Shown: positions 1,682 through 10,778 of the stretch, one piece after another | How positions within the stretch are numbered: the first letter of the stretch is position 1 | How the letters are laid out: every line of letters begins with the position of its first letter | Source of the DNA: Candidatus Cacconaster equi | Lineage (GTDB): Bacteria; Bacteroidota; Bacteroidia; Bacteroidales; UBA932 | Direction: 5' to 3' | DNA: 64,000 nt | NCBI GenBank assembly: GCA_018065895.1 | Contig: JAGHSK010000027.1 | Span: 62,001 to 126,000 of the forward strand | Program-made: the position numbers and the translations under genes | Notes under the pieces: generated by a model | Told to the model about the DNA's origin: nothing | Seen by the model: only the letters and a program-made list of their open reading frames with translations | Databases searched by the model: none

Positions 1682-2911
1682 ATGAAATATTCCATTATCA
1701 TTTTGACAGGTGGCGGTCCTGCTCCCGGAATGAATACCGTCGTAGGCTCTCTGACAAAAGCATTCATTGCAAACGGATATAGAGTTCTCGGTCTTCACGG
1801 AGGTTATTCAGGACTTTTTTCAGCCACTCCAAAATACGAAGAGCTTGATTTCTTCAAAGCTGACACCATATTCAACAGAGGCGGATCGTATCTGATGATG
1901 AGCCGTTTCAAACCGACAAACGAAGATTTCGAAAAGAATTTCAATCTCAAGCTTTTCCAGGACAACAATATCAAGCTTCTCATAACGGTCGGTGGCGACG
2001 ACACCGCTTCTACAGCCAATAGAATAGCCAAGTTCCTCGAATCAAAGAAATACCCTATCCGGAACATTCACGTTCCTAAGACCATCGACAACGACCTTCC
2101 TCTTCCTGACAATGCTCCTACATTCGGTTTCAACTCTGCAAAGGACGAAGGAGCCCATATAGCGAGAACAGCCTATGAGGACGCCCGCACATCAGGCAAC
2201 TGGCTTCTCATCTCCGCTATGGGACGCAGTGCCGGTCACCTTGCATTAGGCATCGGTGAGGCTACTCATTGCCCGATGACAATCATCCCCGAGATGTTCA
2301 ACAAAACCAGAATCAACGTTGACAAAATAATAAAGCTGACTCTCTCAGCCATCATCAAAAGGAAGATTCTCGGCATACCTTATGGCACTGTTGTAGTTGC
2401 CGAAGGCGTATTTCACGATCTTGATGCCGAAGACCTCAAGGCTACCGGAGTGCATATGTCATACGACGAGCACGGGCATCCTGAACTCGGCAAGATTTCA
2501 AAGGCAGTTCTCTTCAATGACATACTCGAAAAGGAACTCAACAAGTACGGTCTGAAGGTAAAGACCCGTCCGATTGAAATCGGATATGACGTACGTTGCC
2601 AGGATCCTATAGCTTACGACCTCACATACTGCTCCGAGCTTGCGATGGGCGCATATGAACTCTTCGCCAAAGGTGAGACAGGATGTATGGTTTACGTTGA
2701 TCACAAGGGCAATGCCCATCCTCTGTATCTGCATGAACTGCAGAATTCCGAAGGAAAGATTCCGCCTCGCCGCGTGGACATTGATGGTGGCACCGCCCGG
2801 AACTATTACAGCCACATATGCCACTTCATAACTCCAGCCGACTATGATGCGGCCAGGAAGTATGTCCCTAACCCTGAAGAATACGACTTCAAGAAGATTC
2901 TGAATTGGTAA
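1682..2911 (+). CDS. PPi-dependent 6-phosphofructokinase (diphosphate-fructose-6-phosphate 1-phosphotransferase type)
   Basis: Phosphorylates fructose 6-phosphate to fructose 1,6-bisphosphate in cytoplasmic glycolysis, most likely with pyrophosphate as donor and reversibly. The donor is inferred from two positions: GGDDT at residues 104-108, where ATP enzymes have GGDGS, and PKTIDND at 132-138 with lysine K133, where ATP enzymes have PGTIDND. Both substitutions are the known signature of PPi-linked enzymes. The N-terminal glycine loop (GGGPAPGMN, 10-18) is intact and the 409-residue length suits the short PPi-PFK group. The last codons overlap the start of the amylase gene, so the two are probably translated together. 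Confidence 0.9.
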   Translation: MKYSIIILTGGGPAPGMNTVVGSLTKAFIANGYRVLGLHGGYSGLFSATPKYEELDFFKADTIFNRGGSYLMMSRFKPTNEDFEKNFNLKLFQDNNIKLLITVGGDDTASTANRIAKFLESKKYPIRNIHVPKTIDNDLPLPDNAPTFGFNSAKDEGAHIARTAYEDARTSGNWLLISAMGRSAGHLALGIGEATHCPMTIIPEMFNKTRINVDKIIKLTLSAIIKRKILGIPYGTVVVAEGVFHDLDAEDLKATGVHMSYDEHGHPELGKISKAVLFNDILEKELNKYGLKVKTRPIEIGYDVRCQDPIAYDLTYCSELAMGAYELFAKGETGCMVYVDHKGNAHPLYLHELQNSEGKIPPRRVDIDGGTARNYYSHICHFITPADYDAARKYVPNPEEYDFKKILNW

Positions 2912-4389
2912 AAACAATAATATATCAATTGCTTGTAAGAGCTTTCGGCACGCGAGACTGTGTTCCCGGAAGCTCTTACGGCGTAAATGGCTCCGGAAAG
3001 TTCTCCGACATAACCGACGAGTACCTAAGAAAGCTCAAACAGCTCTCCATAGGAGCGGTGTGGTACACAGGAGTGATATCACATGCCACAAAAACTCATT
3101 TCAGAGGCATTCCTGACTGCAACAGTTCAATTGTCAAGGGAGAAGCCGGTTCACCATACGCCATACGCAACTATTTCGACGTTGATCCGGCACTTGCCCG
3201 CAACGTTGACAACAGGATGGCGGAATTTCAGGCTCTTGTCGACAGAACCCACAAGGCCGGAATGAAGGTCATCATCGATTTCGTTCCGAATCACGTATTC
3301 CGTGAATATAATACATATTTCACAAAAGAGAATTTCTACATTCTGAACGAGCCCCTGCACCTTCCCGGTGAGTTGTGCAGCAACTACATCGAGAATCCGG
3401 CCAAAGCCACTGGAAACGATGTATTCAGCGCATATCCTTCCGTCAGCGACTGGTATGAGACAGCGAAGTTGAATTACGGCAGCCATTCCACGTGGGAGAA
3501 AATGCTGGACATCCTGAAATTCTGGGCCAGCAAAGGTGTCGACGGCTTCCGCTGCGATATGGTGGAGATGGTTCCGGCCGACTTTTTCAAATGGGCCTTC
3601 AGCGAAGTACGCAAGTCCTTCCCTTCAATGATGTTTATCGCTGAAGTCTACCAGAAATCCAATTACCAGAACTATGCTTCTGCCGGATTCGACCTGTTGT
3701 ACGATAAATCAGGTTTTTACGACGCACTCAGAGGCATCATTGCCGGAGCGCGTCCTGCCAGTGACCTCACGAGGGAGTGGCAGGATATCGGGGATCTTCA
3801 GCCGAAAATGCTCAATTTTCTGGAAAATCACGATGAACAGCGTGTGGCGTCTGATTTCTTTGCAGGAAGCGGAAGATCGGCATTCCCGGCACTTGCCGTT
3901 TCCCTCCTGTTCAACACTGCCCCTTTCATGATCTATTTCGGACAGGAATTCGGAGAAAGAGGGATGGAAGCGGAAGGTTTCAGCGGGAGGGATGGCCGTA
4001 CATCCATATATGACTACTGCATAGTGCCGTCCATCAAGCGTTTCCTGCTTGACAGACTTTCTCTCGAAGAATCGCTCATATACAAGGAGTACTGCAGACT
4101 GATGCGCATTGCGACGGCCGATTCGATTTTCTCAAAAGGAAAGACGTTCGACCTTATGTACGCCAATCCCGCTTCAAGCCGTTTCAACCCACAGAAGCAG
4201 TTCGTTTGGATGAGGGGATATGCCGGGGCCGCAATGGTCATTGTCGCGAATTTCGATTCCACCCCAGTAGAGGTTGACGTCTGCATCCCGCAGGAAGCCT
4301 TTGACTATTTCGGTATCGAACGCAAAGCCACCGTCATACATACCCGCGTCAACGCCCGTGACTATATGCGGGTGGATATCTCAGAATAG
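2905..4389 (+). CDS. GH13 alpha-amylase-family glycoside hydrolase, cytoplasmic
   Basis: Hydrolyses or rearranges alpha-1,4 glucans. The (beta/alpha)8 barrel begins at once, with no signal peptide, so it should act inside the cell on glycogen or imported maltodextrin. The three catalytic acids are visible: nucleophile D218 in GFRCDMV, general acid E247 in FIAEVYQ and D310 in ENHDEQ. The only start that keeps the first barrel strand (VKTIIYQLLVRAF) is a TTG at 2905, which overlaps the phosphofructokinase stop by 7 bases; this suggests translational coupling and a link between glucan breakdown and glycolysis. The precise specificity (amylase, neopullulanase or transferase) cannot be told. The gene ends one base from the convergent GH3 gene. 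Confidence 0.88.
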   Translation: MVKTIIYQLLVRAFGTRDCVPGSSYGVNGSGKFSDITDEYLRKLKQLSIGAVWYTGVISHATKTHFRGIPDCNSSIVKGEAGSPYAIRNYFDVDPALARNVDNRMAEFQALVDRTHKAGMKVIIDFVPNHVFREYNTYFTKENFYILNEPLHLPGELCSNYIENPAKATGNDVFSAYPSVSDWYETAKLNYGSHSTWEKMLDILKFWASKGVDGFRCDMVEMVPADFFKWAFSEVRKSFPSMMFIAEVYQKSNYQNYASAGFDLLYDKSGFYDALRGIIAGARPASDLTREWQDIGDLQPKMLNFLENHDEQRVASDFFAGSGRSAFPALAVSLLFNTAPFMIYFGQEFGERGMEAEGFSGRDGRTSIYDYCIVPSIKRFLLDRLSLEESLIYKEYCRLMRIATADSIFSKGKTFDLMYANPASSRFNPQKQFVWMRGYAGAAMVIVANFDSTPVEVDVCIPQEAFDYFGIERKATVIHTRVNARDYMRVDISE

Positions 4390-4390
4390 T

Positions 4391-5647
4391 CTAATCCCGG
4401 CCTCTGTCGAGTATCAAGGTTCCATCTTGCTTTTCACTCTTGGCAGAAGTCGTGTCAACCTCCGCAAGTGCGGCGTTCATCCTTTCGATAAGTTCAAAAT
4501 CGCGTATTCTCGCCTGTTCTATCTTTTCAGGTATGTTCTTCACCCGTGGAGAGTAACATCTGTCCAGGAGGCCCGCTTTCGCCTTCATGGTCAAAACCTT
4601 ACGGACTTTCGAATCCAATTCGTCAATGGATAGTTCCCCACTTTCCACCATAGAGGCTATGGCCTCTATGCCGGCAATCGGAATATCGGGCATAAGAAGC
4701 ATATCCACGCCAGCCTTATAGGCCGAAACCATCACTTCAACAGGAGTGCGTCCGTTCGCCACGCCACCCATTCTCAAGGCATCAGTCACAACAATTCCCT
4801 TGAATCCCATCTCGTTCTTGAGAAGATCCGTCACACACTTCCTGGAGATGGACATCGGAACCATTGCGGAATCTATTGAAGGGATGCAGTGATGCCCCAT
4901 CATCATGAATTCAACCCCGTCATCGACCAGGCGTTGGAATGGAACCAGATATGCCGAATCCATCTGGGCACGGGTGTAACCGAATACCGGCATCTCGACG
5001 TGGGAATCAATCATAACGTTGCCGTGACCTGGGAAATGTTTGCCGCAGGCATACACGCCGCCATCCTGAAGTCCGCGCATATATGCTGAACAATAATTGG
5101 CAATCAGTTCTATTCCAGGACCGAAACGGCGGAAATGATAATTGTCATCACCCTCTTCAGCAACATCCGCCACCGGCGCAAAATTCACCAGAATATTCAA
5201 GTCTCGCAACTCCCTGGCAACATTCAGTCCCATCTCATAGAGGAGAGGTTCGGCATCGGGAATATTTGTCAGCTGTGACTGATACGGATAGTCTGGATAT
5301 TCGTAGAAACGCATTGCAGCGCCCCATTCGGCGTCAGTGCAGACAATCAGCGGAATCTTGCTTTTCGACTGCAGGTCGTTCGCTCTGTTCATGAAAGGCA
5401 CTACCGGCCCGCGCATTATGATGATACCACCCAATCCCATTTCGACCAAAGAATCCTGTTCCGCACGTTCAGCCTCATTGTTGTTTCGGTCGATCTGTAC
5501 AACTACCAGTTGGGCCACCTTGTCCCTGACGGACATTCTCTTCATTGTGGCATCCACCTTTCTGGCGATGCCCTTTTCAGAATTGCACACACAAGAGGAG
5601 GCCACGTACAGGAGAGCCGCCAAAGAAATAATAACCAGTTTCTTCAT
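4391..5647 (-). CDS. GH3 beta-N-acetylglucosaminidase-like lipoprotein (NagZ family)
   Basis: Likely removes terminal GlcNAc from muropeptides or other GlcNAc glycans. The N-terminus is a lipoprotein signal with acceptor C19 (VASSC), so the enzyme should be membrane-anchored outside the cytoplasm, unlike cytoplasmic E. coli NagZ. The family signature KHFPGHGN lies at 203-210, followed by the D214/H216 dyad that acts as acid/base in NagZ enzymes, and the nucleophile D289 in VVTDALRMGG. The 418-residue length equals a single catalytic domain without the extra beta-sandwich of larger GH3 enzymes. It starts 13 bases after the M64/S66/EEP fusion gene and is surely its operon partner, which points to a shared role in murein or glycan breakdown. 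Confidence 0.88.
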   Translation of the reverse strand: MKKLVIISLAALLYVASSCVCNSEKGIARKVDATMKRMSVRDKVAQLVVVQIDRNNNEAERAEQDSLVEMGLGGIIIMRGPVVPFMNRANDLQSKSKIPLIVCTDAEWGAAMRFYEYPDYPYQSQLTNIPDAEPLLYEMGLNVARELRDLNILVNFAPVADVAEEGDDNYHFRRFGPGIELIANYCSAYMRGLQDGGVYACGKHFPGHGNVMIDSHVEMPVFGYTRAQMDSAYLVPFQRLVDDGVEFMMMGHHCIPSIDSAMVPMSISRKCVTDLLKNEMGFKGIVVTDALRMGGVANGRTPVEVMVSAYKAGVDMLLMPDIPIAGIEAIASMVESGELSIDELDSKVRKVLTMKAKAGLLDRCYSPRVKNIPEKIEQARIRDFELIERMNAALAEVDTTSAKSEKQDGTLILDRGRD

Positions 5648-5660
5648 CGGTCAAATTAAT

Positions 5661-8654
5661 CTAAAATTCAAATATTGTCATTACAGGAAAATGGTCTGAA
5701 GCGTATGTCGCACCATATTTGGATGTTACGGTCTCATACCTGAGCGGGATGGCATTCCTGCAGAAAAGATGGTCAATCACATTTCCACCTGAATTGACGG
5801 CAATGTCCCCCCACTCGTTATAAGTATTCATAAAATCCGTTTCCGGAGCACTGAGACGTGACATGTCCAGATATTTTAAAAGAGGCTTGAGAATATGGTC
5901 GTCATAGTTTGCGTTGAAATCTCCCGTGAGGAATACCGGATCGCCATCCGGAACAATCTCCTTGATTTTCCCGACTATCAGCTTTCCCTCCTCCTTACGT
6001 GCCTTTTTTCCGATATGGTCAAAATGGGTGTTGAAGAAATACACGTCGCGGCCATCGGCTTCATTGTCAAGAAAATGGCCCCAGACCACAACTCTCTTGT
6101 AGGCAGCATCCCATCCGAGAGATTCAGTTCCGGGTGTTTCACTGAGCCAGAAGGTGCCGCACTCGACAGGAGAATAGCGGTCCTTGCGCCAAAATATGGC
6201 ATTCGCCTCACCGCTCGCGTCATTGCCTTCGTGGCCGGCCCCATACCGGCCATAATCCGGAAGATTCTTCTCAATGAAATTCACCTGGTCAAAAAGTCCC
6301 TCCTGGATACCGAACAAATCCGGCTGACGGTCATTCATCAAGGCAATCACCGCATCCCTGCGGTACTTCCAATTGTTGTCGCCGTCAAAATCTTCCGTGG
6401 GACAGATGCGGATATTGAAACTCATCACATTTGTCCTCACCGGTTTCCGTGAGCGATCAACGGCATCAGGATATTCCAGTACAGCCGAATTGCCGTCAAC
6501 CTTCAGTCTTACTTTCGCGCCCTCTATCAAAGGCATATTCTTGCGGGCATGCCCGGCAGGAAAGCCGTAACATACCGGTATGTCAAGATTCTTCAAAGAC
6601 TCGGAGAGCATCTCCTCCACTCTCGAGTAACGGAGATCGTCGCCACAACCCACAAAATCACCGACAACAACTCCCTTGATACGGTCACGATGATGCAGCA
6701 GAATGGCGCTGAGCTGGCGGTCGATGCAGTGCATGCTCTCTCCGACCTCTTCGATGAAGAGAATACAATCGTGTCCGGCAAAGCAGTCATACGGCGTGCC
6801 GAGAAGAGGCACAATGTTGGTCATGTTTCCGCCTACGAGAATGCCTTCGGCTTCACCCTTCTCATTGAGAGGGTCCGCAGGAATCTCGTATCGTGGCAAT
6901 TTCCCGCCGAGAATGTCAAGCATTGCCGCATTTCCCTCATCATCAAGACCTTTTGTTGCAAGAGCAATGCACATATTGCCGTGAATACTCATACTTCCGG
7001 CAGCCACGGCAGGCATCAGCAGCGATGTGATGTCGCTGCAACCCACAAACCACTTCGGATAGCAGCGGAATGCGTCCATAACCTCATCAGAGAGGGTGTG
7101 GATAGCCCCGTACCCTCCGGTAAGACATATGATTCCTTTGATGCTTGTGTCCCGCAAAGCCCACAAAAGGTCCTCCTGCCGTTCTTGAGGAGTCCCGGCG
7201 AAGCGGCTTCCCTCTCCTTCCGTAAGCGGATATCTTTTGAGTGCATTTTTTCCAAGAACGGGTTGATATCCCATAGAGGAAAGCATTCCGGCTGACAGCT
7301 TCACGAGAGAATCTTCCATTGCATATGCCGGTGCTATCATCGCAATCCTGTCACCTTTTTTCAGGAAAGATGGCATCTTCGGCAGAAATTCTCTGTCAAG
7401 GCGGCAGAATCTTCCATCCTGATCCTGCTCCGTATTGAAAAGAATCATCTGTTCAACAGCTCTTTGGCACACTTTGCAGAAGGCTTCGGCCTTGTTGGTC
7501 CGCATCCGGCAATCTTCTTCGGAGCGCCATACTCCTTTTGGCTGATAGCCTGCTCCCTCCACCAGCCCGACACCCTTTTCCCCCGAATCGATCATATCTT
7601 TCCATTTGGAGGTGAAATCCGTCTTGGTGGTAATGTTCTTTTCCCACGGTTCAATATCACTGAAATAGAAAGGATCGCCCTCGTACCCATTGTCGACGTA
7701 TTCATCGGCAAGAGCCCCGAACGAATGGCCGAATTCGTGTACGACCACGGGACGGAAAAGATTGTGGTGCGCTGTAGTCAGTGTATATGAATTATAGATT
7801 CCCCCGCCACCGTAAGTATCGGTATTGGCCAGAATAATAATGTGCTCGTATGGCAGCCCGTCAAGTATGTCGTGGAGTCGGAATATGTTTTCCGTTGTGA
7901 GATAACGGTCCATATACATCGAATTGAAATGCGACCCTACTGCAGTATTTTTCCAGATGCCTTTGCCAGGCTCGCTCACGCCACTCTCCCCGGACTCCGC
8001 AGCCACGGCCAGAATGTTGAAATTCCTGCGGTATCTGCCGAACGGTTCGTGATCGAAAAGCGATTCCACAGCTTCTCCCGCATCTTTGTAGAAAAGTTCT
8101 CTCTCCTCCGCAGTATATCCTTCGGCCAGTATCACCACGTCGATTTTCTCGTGCGGATCACCGGACTTGTATATATACCTCTTCTCAACGTCGGACTTCC
8201 TTCTCTTCTCCACCAGGATATCATCTGGATTCACAGGATGGGAATATTCGCAGACGACATGCCTCCTATTGTCGAATAGCCTCACATATACGGTAGCCTT
8301 GGATTGGGGCATGGGAAGGAGAAAAGTGTTTTCATACGACTTAACGACATTCCTGGCCTCGTCCGACGTGAGCCACTCCTGAAACAGTGTTGAAAAAGAG
8401 TTTGCATAAAGGATTTCTCCGGAGACGTCGTCCACCATTCGGATATCGCCGTTTCCCTCCACAGGAACTCTGTCCATGTTCACGGTACGGCCGTACCACC
8501 CGTCAGTACAACTCATTCCGGAAAGGGCCACGTTTACCGTAGAGCGCCCGCCTATGAATTCATAATCAATTCTCAATGTCTTGTCGAAGGCATGAACCGC
8601 AATGGCACTGGCTAGAATCGCGACAAGAACGGCAAATGTTCTGAAAAGTTTCAT
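5661..8654 (-). CDS. Exported fusion: M64 peptidase, S66 LD-carboxypeptidase and EEP-family domain in one chain
   Basis: One uninterrupted 997-residue reading frame joins three enzyme families. Residues 1-20 are a signal peptide; I start at the ATG at 8652-8654 because the upstream 17 codons would bury it. About 20-415 is an IgA-peptidase M64 type metalloprotease with its N-terminal domain and zinc motif H306-E307-F-G-H310 followed by ADEY. About 425-735 is an S66 muramoyl-tetrapeptide LD-carboxypeptidase with the triad S540 (GCSD), E635 (IEEVGE) and H702 (PAGHARKN). About 740-997 is an endonuclease/exonuclease/phosphatase domain with E785, GDFN (D912) and SDHFP (H988). All active sites look intact. 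The GH3 gene follows by 13 bases. A TAnnTTTG-like box with one mismatch lies at 8675-8682. Confidence 0.9.
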   Translation of the reverse strand: MKLFRTFAVLVAILASAIAVHAFDKTLRIDYEFIGGRSTVNVALSGMSCTDGWYGRTVNMDRVPVEGNGDIRMVDDVSGEILYANSFSTLFQEWLTSDEARNVVKSYENTFLLPMPQSKATVYVRLFDNRRHVVCEYSHPVNPDDILVEKRRKSDVEKRYIYKSGDPHEKIDVVILAEGYTAEERELFYKDAGEAVESLFDHEPFGRYRRNFNILAVAAESGESGVSEPGKGIWKNTAVGSHFNSMYMDRYLTTENIFRLHDILDGLPYEHIIILANTDTYGGGGIYNSYTLTTAHHNLFRPVVVHEFGHSFGALADEYVDNGYEGDPFYFSDIEPWEKNITTKTDFTSKWKDMIDSGEKGVGLVEGAGYQPKGVWRSEEDCRMRTNKAEAFCKVCQRAVEQMILFNTEQDQDGRFCRLDREFLPKMPSFLKKGDRIAMIAPAYAMEDSLVKLSAGMLSSMGYQPVLGKNALKRYPLTEGEGSRFAGTPQERQEDLLWALRDTSIKGIICLTGGYGAIHTLSDEVMDAFRCYPKWFVGCSDITSLLMPAVAAGSMSIHGNMCIALATKGLDDEGNAAMLDILGGKLPRYEIPADPLNEKGEAEGILVGGNMTNIVPLLGTPYDCFAGHDCILFIEEVGESMHCIDRQLSAILLHHRDRIKGVVVGDFVGCGDDLRYSRVEEMLSESLKNLDIPVCYGFPAGHARKNMPLIEGAKVRLKVDGNSAVLEYPDAVDRSRKPVRTNVMSFNIRICPTEDFDGDNNWKYRRDAVIALMNDRQPDLFGIQEGLFDQVNFIEKNLPDYGRYGAGHEGNDASGEANAIFWRKDRYSPVECGTFWLSETPGTESLGWDAAYKRVVVWGHFLDNEADGRDVYFFNTHFDHIGKKARKEEGKLIVGKIKEIVPDGDPVFLTGDFNANYDDHILKPLLKYLDMSRLSAPETDFMNTYNEWGDIAVNSGGNVIDHLFCRNAIPLRYETVTSKYGATYASDHFPVMTIFEF

Positions 8655-8720
8655 ACAAGGTCGAATATGCAGTGCGAATTTAATAATAAAGAAGCGTGAA
8701 AACAATAATTGAATTTTTGC

Positions 8721-8728
8721 TAAATTTG
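8721..8728 (+). promoter_or_regulatory. -7 promoter element of the ligA operon
   Basis: TAAATTTG fits TAnnTTTG and lies 16 bases before the ATG at 8745. This position puts the expected transcript start near 8735 and argues for the ATG at 8745 rather than the in-frame TTG at 8736. Confidence 0.6.
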
Positions 8729-8744
8729 CAGATTATTGTCTATT

Positions 8745-10778
8745 ATGGCTAAGATTTCGAAGACATCGGCAAAAGAGCGGATCGAGTTCCTTTCAAAGGA
8801 GCTGGAAAGACATAACCGCAACTATTATGTCATGAATGCCCCGACCATCAGCGATTTCGAATTCGACCTGCTGATGAGCGAGCTGCAGACCCTCGAGAAG
8901 ATGTTCCCGGAGTTCGCTTCACAACAGAGTCCGACACGCCACGTAGGCAGTGACCTTGAGACGTCAAAAGCCAGAAACGGGATGGAGTTTGAGCAGGTGG
9001 CTCACCGCTATCCGATGTTGTCGCTCGGCAACACCTACAGCAAGGAGGAGATGTACGAATTCTTCAACCGCATAACCAGAACGGTCACCCAAAAGATCAC
9101 ATTCTCCTGCGAACTGAAGTTCGACGGCACGGCGATATGTCTGACCTACCGCAACGGAAAGCTGGTCCATGCCCTCACCCGCGGTGACGGGACAAAAGGT
9201 GATGACGTCTCACGCAATGTTGCCAATATCAAAAGCATACCTACAGAACTTCACGGGAAGAACATTCCAGAAGAGTTTGAAATACGCGGGGAGATATTCA
9301 TGCCGTTCGATGCATTCGAACGTCTGAATGCTGAAAAGAGAGAGAAGGGAGAGGAACCGTTCGCCAATCCGCGCAACGCCGCATCGGGCTCACTCAAATT
9401 GCAGAATCCGCAGGAAATGAAGGAACGCGGGCTTGACTGCGTACTCTATCATATGCTCGGGGAGAATCTTCCATTCGCCACGCATAGTGAAGCTATTGCA
9501 GCCGCCGGGAGCTGGGGGCTTCCGACGTCAGTCTACAGTGAGACTCTCGACACAATCGAAGCTGCGCTCGAATACATCGGAAAGTGGGACGTCAAGCGGA
9601 AAAGCCTTCCGTTCGCAACTGATGGAATCGTAATCAAGGTCAATGAGCTGAATGTCCAGAGGCAACTTGGAATGACAGCCAAATCGCCACGGTGGGCGAC
9701 TGCCTACAAGTTCAAACCCGAGCAGGCTCTGACTCCCCTGCTGTCCATTGACTATCAGGTGGGTCGTACCGGAGCCATCACTCCGGTTGCAAATCTTGAA
9801 CCCGTCCAGCTTTCCGGCACGGTGGTCAAAAGAGCATCCCTGCACAATCTTGACCAGATGCAACTGCTCGACATACATATAGGCGATTACGTATATGTGG
9901 AGAAAGGTGGCGAAATCATACCGAAAATAACCGGAGTCGAAAAGAGCAGAAGGCCGGATTCCGCCACTCTTCCCGATTTCCCCGCAAAGTGTCCCGACTG
10001 CGGAGCTTTTCTGGTGCGTGACGAGGATGAAGCGAAGCACTACTGTCCTAATTCAGACGGATGTCCGACACAGATCAAGGGAAGGTTCATCCATTTCGCA
10101 AGCCGCAAGGCTATGGACATACTGGCCGGAGACGCGACAATGGAACAACTGTTCGACAAAGGGTATATCCGGCATCTTCAGGACATATACCGCCTGAACA
10201 AAGAGCAGCTGATGACCCTCGACGGATGGCAGGAAAAGTCTGCCGACAACTTCCTTGAGAGCCTCGAAAAGAGCAAGGAGGTCCCTTTTGAAAGAGTGCT
10301 TTTCGCAATCGGAATACGTCACATAGGCGAGCAGAATGCAAAGATGCTGGCAACCCACTACGGAAGCATCGACGCACTGATGGACGCCCCCCGCGAAGAT
10401 CTGCTTCAAATCGACGGCATAGGCGACGCGATGGCCGACTCGATCATGGCATTCTTTGACAACCCCGAAAATATGGCGACAATAGACGAGCTAAGGACAA
10501 GAGGGCTGAAGTTCGAGATTGAAGAGGATCGCGTTAGGAGGATATCCGACAAACTGGCCGGATGCACTGTGGTGATATCGGGCAACTACTCCATTTCGCG
10601 TGAAGCGATGAAGGCCCTCATTGAGGCGCATGGAGGAAAGAACTCGGGATCTGTAAGCGGCAAGACCACTTATCTGCTCGCCGGAGAAAAGAGCGGTCCT
10701 GAGAAATTGAAGAAAGCACAGACACTTGGAGTAAAGGTGATCAGTGAAGAGGACCTTTACAGAATGCTGGAGGAATAG
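8745..10778 (+). CDS. ligA: NAD-dependent DNA ligase
   Basis: Seals nicks in duplex DNA during replication and repair using NAD+. At 677 residues it is full length. The adenylated lysine is K125 in ELKFDG; the adenylation and OB domains follow, then a four-cysteine zinc finger (CPDCGAF ... CPNSDGCP), helix-hairpin-helix repeats and a C-terminal BRCT domain from about residue 600. I chose the ATG at 8745 because the TAnnTTTG element lies directly upstream and an earlier TTG would leave almost no leader. It is the first gene of a tight operon reaching to ispG. Confidence 0.97.
   Translation: MAKISKTSAKERIEFLSKELERHNRNYYVMNAPTISDFEFDLLMSELQTLEKMFPEFASQQSPTRHVGSDLETSKARNGMEFEQVAHRYPMLSLGNTYSKEEMYEFFNRITRTVTQKITFSCELKFDGTAICLTYRNGKLVHALTRGDGTKGDDVSRNVANIKSIPTELHGKNIPEEFEIRGEIFMPFDAFERLNAEKREKGEEPFANPRNAASGSLKLQNPQEMKERGLDCVLYHMLGENLPFATHSEAIAAAGSWGLPTSVYSETLDTIEAALEYIGKWDVKRKSLPFATDGIVIKVNELNVQRQLGMTAKSPRWATAYKFKPEQALTPLLSIDYQVGRTGAITPVANLEPVQLSGTVVKRASLHNLDQMQLLDIHIGDYVYVEKGGEIIPKITGVEKSRRPDSATLPDFPAKCPDCGAFLVRDEDEAKHYCPNSDGCPTQIKGRFIHFASRKAMDILAGDATMEQLFDKGYIRHLQDIYRLNKEQLMTLDGWQEKSADNFLESLEKSKEVPFERVLFAIGIRHIGEQNAKMLATHYGSIDALMDAPREDLLQIDGIGDAMADSIMAFFDNPENMATIDELRTRGLKFEIEEDRVRRISDKLAGCTVVISGNYSISREAMKALIEAHGGKNSGSVSGKTTYLLAGEKSGPEKLKKAQTLGVKVISEEDLYRMLEE

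What the first reader, a model, noticed from the sequence alone, without database searches (positions are those of the whole stretch)
5661..8654. Three enzymes from unrelated families in one exported protein
A single open frame joins an M64 metallopeptidase, an S66 LD-carboxypeptidase and an endonuclease/exonuclease/phosphatase domain, all with intact active-site residues (H306/E307/H310; S540/E635/H702; E785/D912/H988). I do not know of a described protein with this order. Together with the NagZ-like GH3 lipoprotein 13 bases downstream it suggests an envelope machine that cleaves peptide, D-alanine and phosphate- or phospholipid-type bonds of murein- or host-derived polymers. S66 enzymes are normally cytoplasmic recycling enzymes, so an exported one is itself unusual.
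Basis: partly seen in the sequence, partly recalled or inferred. Interest (0 to 1): 0.78.

Follow-up and report, generated by a model that had tools for sequence, protein, structure and literature searches.

The report
Three exported enzymes welded into one
A gut bacterium carries one exported protein in which two different peptide-cutting enzymes and a phosphate-cutting enzyme, which its relatives make as separate proteins, are joined end to end, probably to take apart peptide- and phosphate-bearing debris outside the cytoplasm.

Summary
In detail: window 5661-8654, minus strand, 997 aa, signal peptide, then M64, S66 and endonuclease/exonuclease/phosphatase (EEP) domains with all nine named residues in place. 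The genus is that of Ca. Cacconaster (Bacteroidales). In relative G200 the three parts are separate exported proteins on three contigs. The fusion was seen in 1 of 996 genomes. With the adjacent GH3 gene it forms a ~4.3-kb insert between GH13 and ligA, which adjoin in G200, so an assembly artefact is unlikely. "Exported S66 is unusual" is wrong: 18 of 24 S66 rows fetched look exported. The M64 part resembles BF3526, an N-terminus-trimming peptidase inactive on intact IgA. The same family holds other exported fusions of these domains: S66-phosphodiesterase beside a NAGLU gene, EEP-GDPD, GH78-EEP, SASA-EEP, GH92-M64. Best reading: a periplasmic or vesicle enzyme that finishes off peptide- and phosphate-bearing debris, perhaps Gram-positive wall. 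The substrate is inferred, not shown. A new variant of multicatalytic hydrolases.

The parts
8589..8654 (-). Sec-type signal peptide, residues 1-22 (MKLFRTFAVLVAILASAIAVHA), no lipobox (read by eye)
   Evidence: sequence; same type of N terminus in the G200 M64
8253..8588 (-). M64 N-terminal domain (PF16217), residues 23-134
   Evidence: modelled with mostly high pLDDT
7419..8174 (-). M64 metallopeptidase domain (PF09471), residues 161-412, H306/E307/H310; closest solved relatives 4df9/9qdi (BF3526) and 3p1v
   Evidence: tree: sister of the G200 standalone M64, 98/95; residues 318-377 modelled poorly
7377..7418 (-). linker 1, residues 413-426; Cys419 aligns with the lipobox Cys of the G200 standalone S66 in one pairwise alignment (not with that of G027)
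   Evidence: pLDDT under 50 at 410-423
6471..7376 (-). S66 peptidase domain (PF02016+PF17676), residues 427-728, S540/E635/H702
6435..6470 (-). linker 2, residues 729-740
5664..6434 (-). EEP phosphatase domain (PF03372), residues 741-997, E785/D912/H988; relatives 3g6s, 3mpr, 4c1r (mannosyl-6-phosphatase)
4391..5647 (-). GH3 single-domain protein with a lipobox-like ASSC (by eye), 13 bases downstream of the fusion
   Evidence: 80% relative in G188 in another place
4391..8700 (.). two-gene insert (GH3 + fusion) between GH13 (2905-4389 +) and ligA (8736-10778 +), which adjoin in G200; the right border is approximate
   Evidence: (L148), sequences

Best explanation
It is a composite exported hydrolase known from one species. 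Three enzymes that relatives in the genus make as separate exported proteins (a Sec-secreted M64, an exported S66, an EEP lipoprotein) are joined in frame; one Sec signal peptide serves all three, and no lipid anchor remains. The gene sits with a GH3 lipoprotein gene between GH13 and ligA, as the probable first gene of a two-gene operon. Shown here: the fusion, intact named active-site residues, separate relatives, the empty site in a related genome. Inferred mechanism: the chain is exported to the periplasm (or to vesicles); the M64 domain takes two or three residues at a time from the N termini of already broken peptides, as BF3526 does; the S66 domain takes the C-terminal D-amino acid (or a similarly linked residue) from the other end; the EEP domain takes phosphate from attached sugar or polyol phosphate; GH3 removes an amino sugar. 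Together they finish off fragments that carry peptide, phosphate and amino sugar. The most likely such material is bacterial wall debris, including Gram-positive peptidoglycan with teichoic acid. My odds: composite exported enzyme of local origin 0.85; cooperation of the domains on one class of debris 0.45; wall debris in particular 0.3.
For: Domains and residues. Best matches of each domain lie in the genus or family: M64 67% G200, 66% G182; S66 65% G027, 64% G200; EEP 57% G154 and G194, 55% G092, 53% G200. N termini: EEP 28 of 28 rows lipoprotein-type (24 distinct genes), S66 18 of 24 rows exported-type, M64 56 of 65 (crude rule; rows under 100 bits or starting past domain residue 15 were left out). 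Empty site in G200. The whole-protein search of the own genome found only the fusion and one distant S66; one search lists five further EEP-family places, none close enough to appear. Pairing in other species of the family: S66 + type I phosphodiesterase in one lipoprotein-like chain with a NAGLU gene starting within a few bases of its stop (G1113); EEP + GDPD in two genomes (G1085, G1114); GH78 + EEP in two, SASA + EEP in one; GH92 + M64 in three. BF3526 activity: PMC12402451.
Against: One genome only, so the joined form has no conservation behind it; it could be a neutral accident. In 39 other genomes of the genus the three families do not co-occur more than chance (M64 v S66 of 40% identity or more P 0.49, M64 v EEP 0.14, the latter leaning towards avoidance, S66 v EEP 0.69), and in the loci fetched the standalone genes are not neighbours within the flanks held. 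The EEP domain is not sister to the G200 EEP (G200 and G188 pair at 97/93, own on a branch of 0.74), and within the S66 clade G200 pairs with a G027 copy (88/99) rather than with the own domain, so only the M64 part has a clear source. Six invariant EEP columns are changed, four of them in one loop (806-811), and 6 of 18 near-invariant ones, so the EEP may have lost or changed its activity. BF3526 prefers to cut after Pro, and no murein role is known for it. The nearest named EEP is a mannosyl-6-phosphatase, which points to glycans rather than teichoic acid. The GH3 link is not conserved. No substrate was tested.
Confidence: 0.45

Rival explanations
1. A general nutrient scavenger or a neutral gene fusion: three unrelated exported digestive activities (N-terminal peptide trimming, C-terminal trimming, phosphate release) became one chain without acting on a common polymer. 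(The rivals are not exclusive and the odds need not sum to one.)
For: Single genome; no co-occurrence of the parts; parts unlinked in relatives; CL-I M64 enzymes are proposed to serve peptide turnover or nutrition (PMC12402451 discussion); own M64 and EEP branches are long (0.37 v 0.16 in G200; 0.74).
Against: The named active-site residues of all three are kept; other species of the family join S66 to a phosphodiesterase and EEP to GDPD, which is more than random partners would suggest, though I fetched those by frame length and have no rate.
Confidence: 0.33
2. Remodelling or recycling of the cell's own murein in the periplasm.
For: Export without lipid anchor; the anchors of the S66 and EEP relatives show no clear surface-export motif by eye, not scored (motif from passages of PMC5080379); S66 family and a GH3 neighbour.
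Against: The genome keeps another S66 closer to LdcA; the S66 part is far below the LdcA cut-off (73.6 v 378 bits); GH3 is below the NagZ cut-off; I know of no murein role for M64 or EEP.
Confidence: 0.12
3. Breakdown of host or dietary glycoproteins (phosphorylated mannose glycans, mucin) rather than bacterial walls.
For: EEP relative 4c1r is named mannosyl-6-phosphatase; GH92-M64, GH78-EEP and SASA-EEP fusions in the family combine these domains with glycan enzymes.
Against: S66 has no role in glycoprotein breakdown that I know of; BF3526 relatives are reported not to lie in polysaccharide loci (PMC12402451); BF3526 does not cut intact IgA.
Confidence: 0.15
4. Assembly or binning chimera.
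For: Genome of 61 contigs, 84% complete, 3% contaminated; no second genome of the species was available; codon fit of the four parts is a little below that of seven window genes (-1.10 to -1.19 v -1.02 to -1.09 mean log frequency, the latter being the background themselves).
Against: Two in-frame joins near domain edges; flanking synteny intact on both sides against G200; GC like the neighbours; no shared exact stretch of 8 or more bases in the 170 bp at the two borders.
Confidence: 0.03

Closest known systems
BF3526 of Bacteroides fragilis (PDB 4df9, 9qdi), M64 cluster CL-I
   Same: M64_N + M64 over nearly the whole length (phmmer 5.9e-132, residues 23-408), signal peptide, Bacteroidales
   Different: BF3526 stands alone; here S66 and EEP follow in the same chain
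LD-carboxypeptidase LdcA of Pseudomonas aeruginosa (PDB 1zrs, 1zl0 PA5198) and cytoplasmic S66 enzymes
   Same: S66 family, Ser-Glu-His aligned
   Different: exported, welded between two other enzymes, far below the LdcA equivalog cut-off; its nearest relatives are exported S66 proteins of Bacteroidales
Bacteroides-type EEP proteins 3g6s, 3mpr and 4c1r (the last deposited as mannosyl-6-phosphatase)
   Same: EEP domain, E 7.6e-40 to 2.7e-36
   Different: the solved chains are 267-298 residues, one domain; a conserved loop (806-811) differs here
Other exported fusions in the same family: S66-phosphodiesterase (G1113), EEP-GDPD (G1085, G1114), GH78-EEP (G1090, G1121), SASA-EEP (G1109), GH92-M64 (G014, G134, G193)
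   Same: the same domain types joined to other exported hydrolases
   Different: two enzymes each, other partners; none has M64+S66+EEP
Multicatalytic exported CAZymes of Bacteroidota (recalled, no call)
   Same: several catalytic domains under one signal peptide
   Different: those pair glycan enzymes; this one has two peptidases and a phosphoesterase and no glycosidase

Membership tests
Peptidase family M64 (Pfam PF09471 + PF16217) | profile match above the gathering score over both domains | tested here: met
   210.1 v 26 bits and 120.6 v 27 bits
Peptidase family M64 (Pfam PF09471 + PF16217) | zinc motif | tested here: met
   HEFGHSFGALADE at 306-318 (HEXXHXXGXXXDE); PMC12402451 prints the motif as HEXXHXXXGXXD; 42 of 43 columns invariant in 60 relatives are kept, the one change is V148
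M64 cluster CL-I / BF3526-like N-terminus-trimming peptidase | whole-length similarity to BF3526 | tested here: met
   5.9e-132 over 23-408; the published similarity network itself was not rerun
M64 cluster CL-I / BF3526-like N-terminus-trimming peptidase | cleaves near the N termini of pre-cut peptides | not testable with these tools
   needs an assay
Peptidase family S66 | both S66 domains and the Ser-Glu-His triad | tested here: met
LdcA, muramoyltetrapeptide carboxypeptidase (NCBIfam NF008424) | equivalog cut-off 378 bits | tested here: not met
   73.6 bits; not filed as LdcA (the own-genome paralog L064, 134 bits, does not meet it either)
   61.5 v 24.5 bits; E785, D912, H988 present
Mannosyl-6-phosphatase (4c1r) | substrate and conserved loop | tested here: inconclusive
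   similar sequence but loop 806-811 differs at four columns that are invariant in 24 relatives; activity untested
NagZ beta-N-acetylglucosaminidase (GH3 neighbour) | NCBIfam PRK05337 cut-off 207 bits | tested here: not met
   139.2 bits; a KHFPGHGN...DSH motif is present in the sequence (motif recalled)
IgA protease (ThomasA type, M64 CL-V) | closer to ThomasA than to BF3526 | tested here: not met
   IgA protease chains match only at 9.9e-5 to 6.9e-4, BF3526 at 5.9e-132

The most novel reading that the evidence does not exclude
The fusion is a Rosetta stone for an unrecognised exported pathway, spread over this Bacteroidales family, that dismantles Gram-positive wall debris from several sides at once: S66 on stem peptides, M64 on attached peptides, EEP, GDPD or type I phosphodiesterase on teichoic-acid-type phosphates, and a neighbouring exported glycosidase for the amino sugar (GH3 here, NAGLU in G1113). 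Different species have welded different pairs of the same toolkit.
Probability: 0.2. Interest if true: 0.7.

Novelty: new variant of a known kind. Interest (0 to 1): 0.5.

Why it matters
Fused enzymes often act on the same substrate, so the fusion names partners for two poorly understood exported groups of gut Bacteroidales (exported S66 and EEP lipoproteins) and for the CL-I M64 peptidases, whose role is open. Together with the S66-phosphodiesterase and EEP-GDPD fusions it makes one question directly testable: whether gut Bacteroidales digest wall material of other bacteria outside the cytoplasm.

Tried and rejected
Ancestral operon: I looked for M64, S66 and EEP side by side in the loci then held (flanks mostly 1.5-6 kb); none outside the own genome. 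Apparent M64-S66 continuity in G182 (tblastn 23-492) was a chance extension past the stop; S66 gives no hit there. The 1158-aa frame around M64 in G209 is a stop-to-stop frame with a lipobox directly before M64; the frame of G114 reported as 710 aa is 468 aa in my reading, also with a lipobox before M64. Long frames around S66 in G1173, G1031, G1077 and G1052 show a signal-like N terminus directly before S66, so they are not N-terminal fusions. GH3 as a conserved partner: rejected. Phylogenetic profile in the genus: no association. Target-site duplication: none of 8 or more exact bases at the borders. A 27-nt inverted repeat around the fusion is matched or beaten in 12 of 100 shuffles: treated as chance. 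The Bacteroidales promoter pattern gave 2 matches in the window (0.9 expected), neither near the gene; the sigma-70 and terminator scans were not used, since Bacteroidales promoters differ. Full-length structure: M64 mostly and S66 confident, EEP (732-997) not modelled, as no EEP row was in the alignment; that is no evidence about EEP. Paper searches with no hit: S66+LD-carboxypeptidase+Bacteroides, mannosyl-6-phosphatase/BT3783, Peptidase_M64+fusion, GH92+M64+Bacteroidales. Searches for LD-carboxypeptidase+Bacteroidetes+lipoprotein (4 papers) and teichoic acid+Bacteroides+GDPD (352 papers by 3 of 4 terms, 10 seen in the listing) were read as listings only. So nothing is claimed about print beyond these searches.
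Full report
THE OBSERVATION. The frame is on the minus strand, ATG at 8654 to the stop ending at 5661, 997 aa. Pfam finds M64_N, M64, S66 N and C domains and EEP, all above the gathering scores. The S66 triad aligns with Pseudomonas LdcA; in chains 2aum and 2aun the aligned Ser and His are Ala, which I take to be active-site mutants. Columns invariant in relatives are kept at 42 of 43, 45 of 45 and 68 of 74 for M64, S66 and EEP (60, 18 and 24 relatives; genes fetched twice, a few named loci and rows under a score limit were left out first); near-invariant columns (95% or more) at 40 of 42 for M64 and 12 of 18 for EEP. Four of the six EEP changes fall in one loop, 806-811.

WHICH ORGANISM. The own genome, G000, has 1,646,521 bases in 61 contigs and is 84% complete. 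Same-genus genome G200 has a contig of 34,931 bases with the S66 relative; the named record with the same S66 match and length is Ca. Cacconaster merdequi E5_MB2_33, from which I infer the genus. Its authors place the genus in GTDB family UBA932 of Bacteroidales (PMC8957277, passages). The reported size of Ca. C. equi, 1.65 Mbp, equals that of G000, but I could not test whether they are the same.

HOW RARE. The whole protein was searched in 199 family, 40 genus, 393 order and 395 phylum genomes, 996 distinct handles. In the rows listed only G000 has a match spanning more than one whole domain. The S66+EEP part alone, in 398 family genomes, again gave only G000. Limits: in all but the genus search only 2-4 candidates per genome were scored and the match lists were cut; a fusion should rank at the top, but a very diverged one could be missed. 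A pattern scan of a collection of 84,980 named species gave 36 loci, each matching M64 or S66 alone; it finds close relatives only and may leave out the window's own genome. A scan of viral contigs gave none.

WHERE THE PARTS COME FROM. In G200 the parts are separate: M64 on C53 (67%), S66 on C7 (64%), EEP on C77 (53%). Trees (midpoint-rooted): own M64 is sister to that of G200 (98/95, 59 rows); own S66 falls in a clade with G200 and two G027 copies (100/100, 22 rows), inside which G200 pairs with one G027 copy (88/99); own EEP is on a long branch and is not sister to the G200 EEP, which pairs with that of G188 (97/93, 25 rows). Relatives of EEP have lipoprotein-type N termini in 28 of 28 rows (24 distinct genes), S66 in 5 of 24 with a further 13 Sec-type, M64 in 5 of 65 with 51 Sec-type (a simple pattern rule, not SignalP; rows under 100 bits or starting late in the domain were left out, and some rows are the same gene fetched twice). 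In the fusion only the Sec signal before M64 remains. Pairwise with G200, M64 is complete to its native end, the S66 homology begins near the old lipobox Cys (Cys419 aligns with it; the G027 S66 does not show this), and EEP begins just after its old lipobox.

WHERE IT SITS. Names of neighbouring genes without a Pfam call are read by eye. In G200 the order rfbB-pfk-GH13-ligA is unbroken with about 100 bp between GH13 and ligA; identities to the window are 90, 90, 81 and 80% (L148). In the window GH3 and the fusion lie between GH13 and ligA. In G188, G199, G080 and G125 pfk-GH13 adjoin ligA in another orientation, also without the two genes; in G182 the ligA context differs. The own genome's counterparts of the G200 neighbours were located with one concatenated query: the uridine-kinase-like gene is now followed by a rarA-like gene and not by S66, and the HAD gene is followed, on the other strand, by a PqqD gene and an S24-like one (22.0 bits, below the cut-off of 23.3) and not by EEP. 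The RmuC-like match (43-45%) is too diverged to be sure of that site, and because the EEP tree does not join own and G200, absence there need not mean relocation. The whole-protein search of the own genome shows only the fusion and one distant S66; it has five other EEP-family places, none close to this subfamily. At 84% completeness this is suggestive only.

WHAT THE PARTS DO. The M64 part is BF3526-like. BF3526 does not cut intact IgA; it cuts near N termini of pre-cut proteins, mainly after proline, and is thought to hold two or three residues before the cut (PMC12402451: abstract, passages, sections 7 and 11 and part 1 of 2 of the discussion). S66 LD-carboxypeptidases remove a C-terminal D-residue from murein stems (family knowledge). 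EEP's nearest solved relatives include a chain deposited as mannosyl-6-phosphatase. The GH3 is a single-domain GH3 below the NagZ cut-off.

THE FAMILY HABIT. Open frames that were too long for single domains led to other fusions in the same GTDB family. S66 + type I phosphodiesterase in one lipoprotein-like chain, followed within a few bases by a NAGLU gene (G1113, L169/L180). EEP + GDPD (G1085 L174, G1114 L175). GH78-type rhamnosidase + EEP (G1090, G1121), SASA + EEP (G1109), GLUG motif + EEP (G1037). GH92 + M64 (G014, G134, G193). I fetched these because their frames were long, so they are examples and not rates; of the ten loci six held such a fusion and four did not. S66 has thus been joined to a phosphoesterase twice, each time next to a gene for an exported glycosidase that is (NAGLU) or may be (GH3) an N-acetylglucosaminidase.

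MECHANISM. Shown: one exported chain, three sets of active-site residues in place, separate exported relatives, an insert absent from the six related genomes looked at. Inferred: a periplasmic or vesicle-borne finisher of debris that carries peptide, phosphate and amino sugar, most likely bacterial wall material. The two S66-phosphoesterase fusions and EEP-GDPD favour this over host glycoprotein; the mannosyl-phosphatase likeness of EEP, its changed loop, the Pro preference of BF3526, the glycan-enzyme partners of M64 and EEP elsewhere, and the lack of co-occurrence in the genus speak against it. The structure model shows mostly confident M64 (318-377 poor) and confident S66 and a low-confidence linker at 410-423; EEP was not modelled. 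No fold search was made.

VERDICT. Real, so far a single example, not an artefact as far as can be told, and of a known general kind (multicatalytic exported hydrolases, recalled) with a new and odd set of parts.

Noticed in passing
L169:1179-3194 and L180 (G1113:C54): S66 peptidase joined to a type I phosphodiesterase/nucleotide pyrophosphatase domain in one lipoprotein-like chain, with a NAGLU (alpha-N-acetylglucosaminidase) gene starting within a few bases of its stop.
   Followed up: partly
L174:1319-3079 (G1085:C12) and L175:252-1988 (G1114:C68): EEP joined to a glycerophosphodiester phosphodiesterase (GDPD) domain, lipobox-like N terminus, in two species.
   Followed up: partly
L056, L057, L058 (G014, G193, G134): GH92 alpha-mannosidase (N and catalytic domains) joined to M64_N+M64 in one ~1120-aa protein in three species of one genus.
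   Followed up: partly
L165, L166 (G1090, G1121) and L167 (G1109): GH78-type rhamnosidase joined to EEP in two species, and a SASA acetylesterase joined to EEP in one.
   Followed up: partly
L134:13346-19749 (G034) and L136:13953-19999 (G219): Tandem ~1000-1135-aa proteins with distant M64 similarity, 10-12 kb from a GH3 about 50% identical to the window's; the first of L134 has BACON, thioredoxin-like and M64 domains, the others were not scanned.
   Followed up: no
window 6222-6239 (residues 806-811): A loop of the EEP domain invariant in 24 relatives is changed at four columns (A806, H808, G810, N811), a possible change of specificity or loss of EEP activity.
   Followed up: no
L163:12904-14513 (G000:C18): Where G200 has the EEP gene after HAD, the own genome has a PqqD gene, an S24-like gene (below cut-off) and an unnamed gene on the other strand.
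   Followed up: no
window 5652-5678 and 8702-8728: A 27-nt imperfect inverted repeat (85%) brackets the fusion gene; 12 of 100 shuffles do as well.
   Followed up: yes
G000:C29:53949-54845 (L064): A second S66 without an evident signal, closer to LdcA than the fused one.
   Followed up: partly
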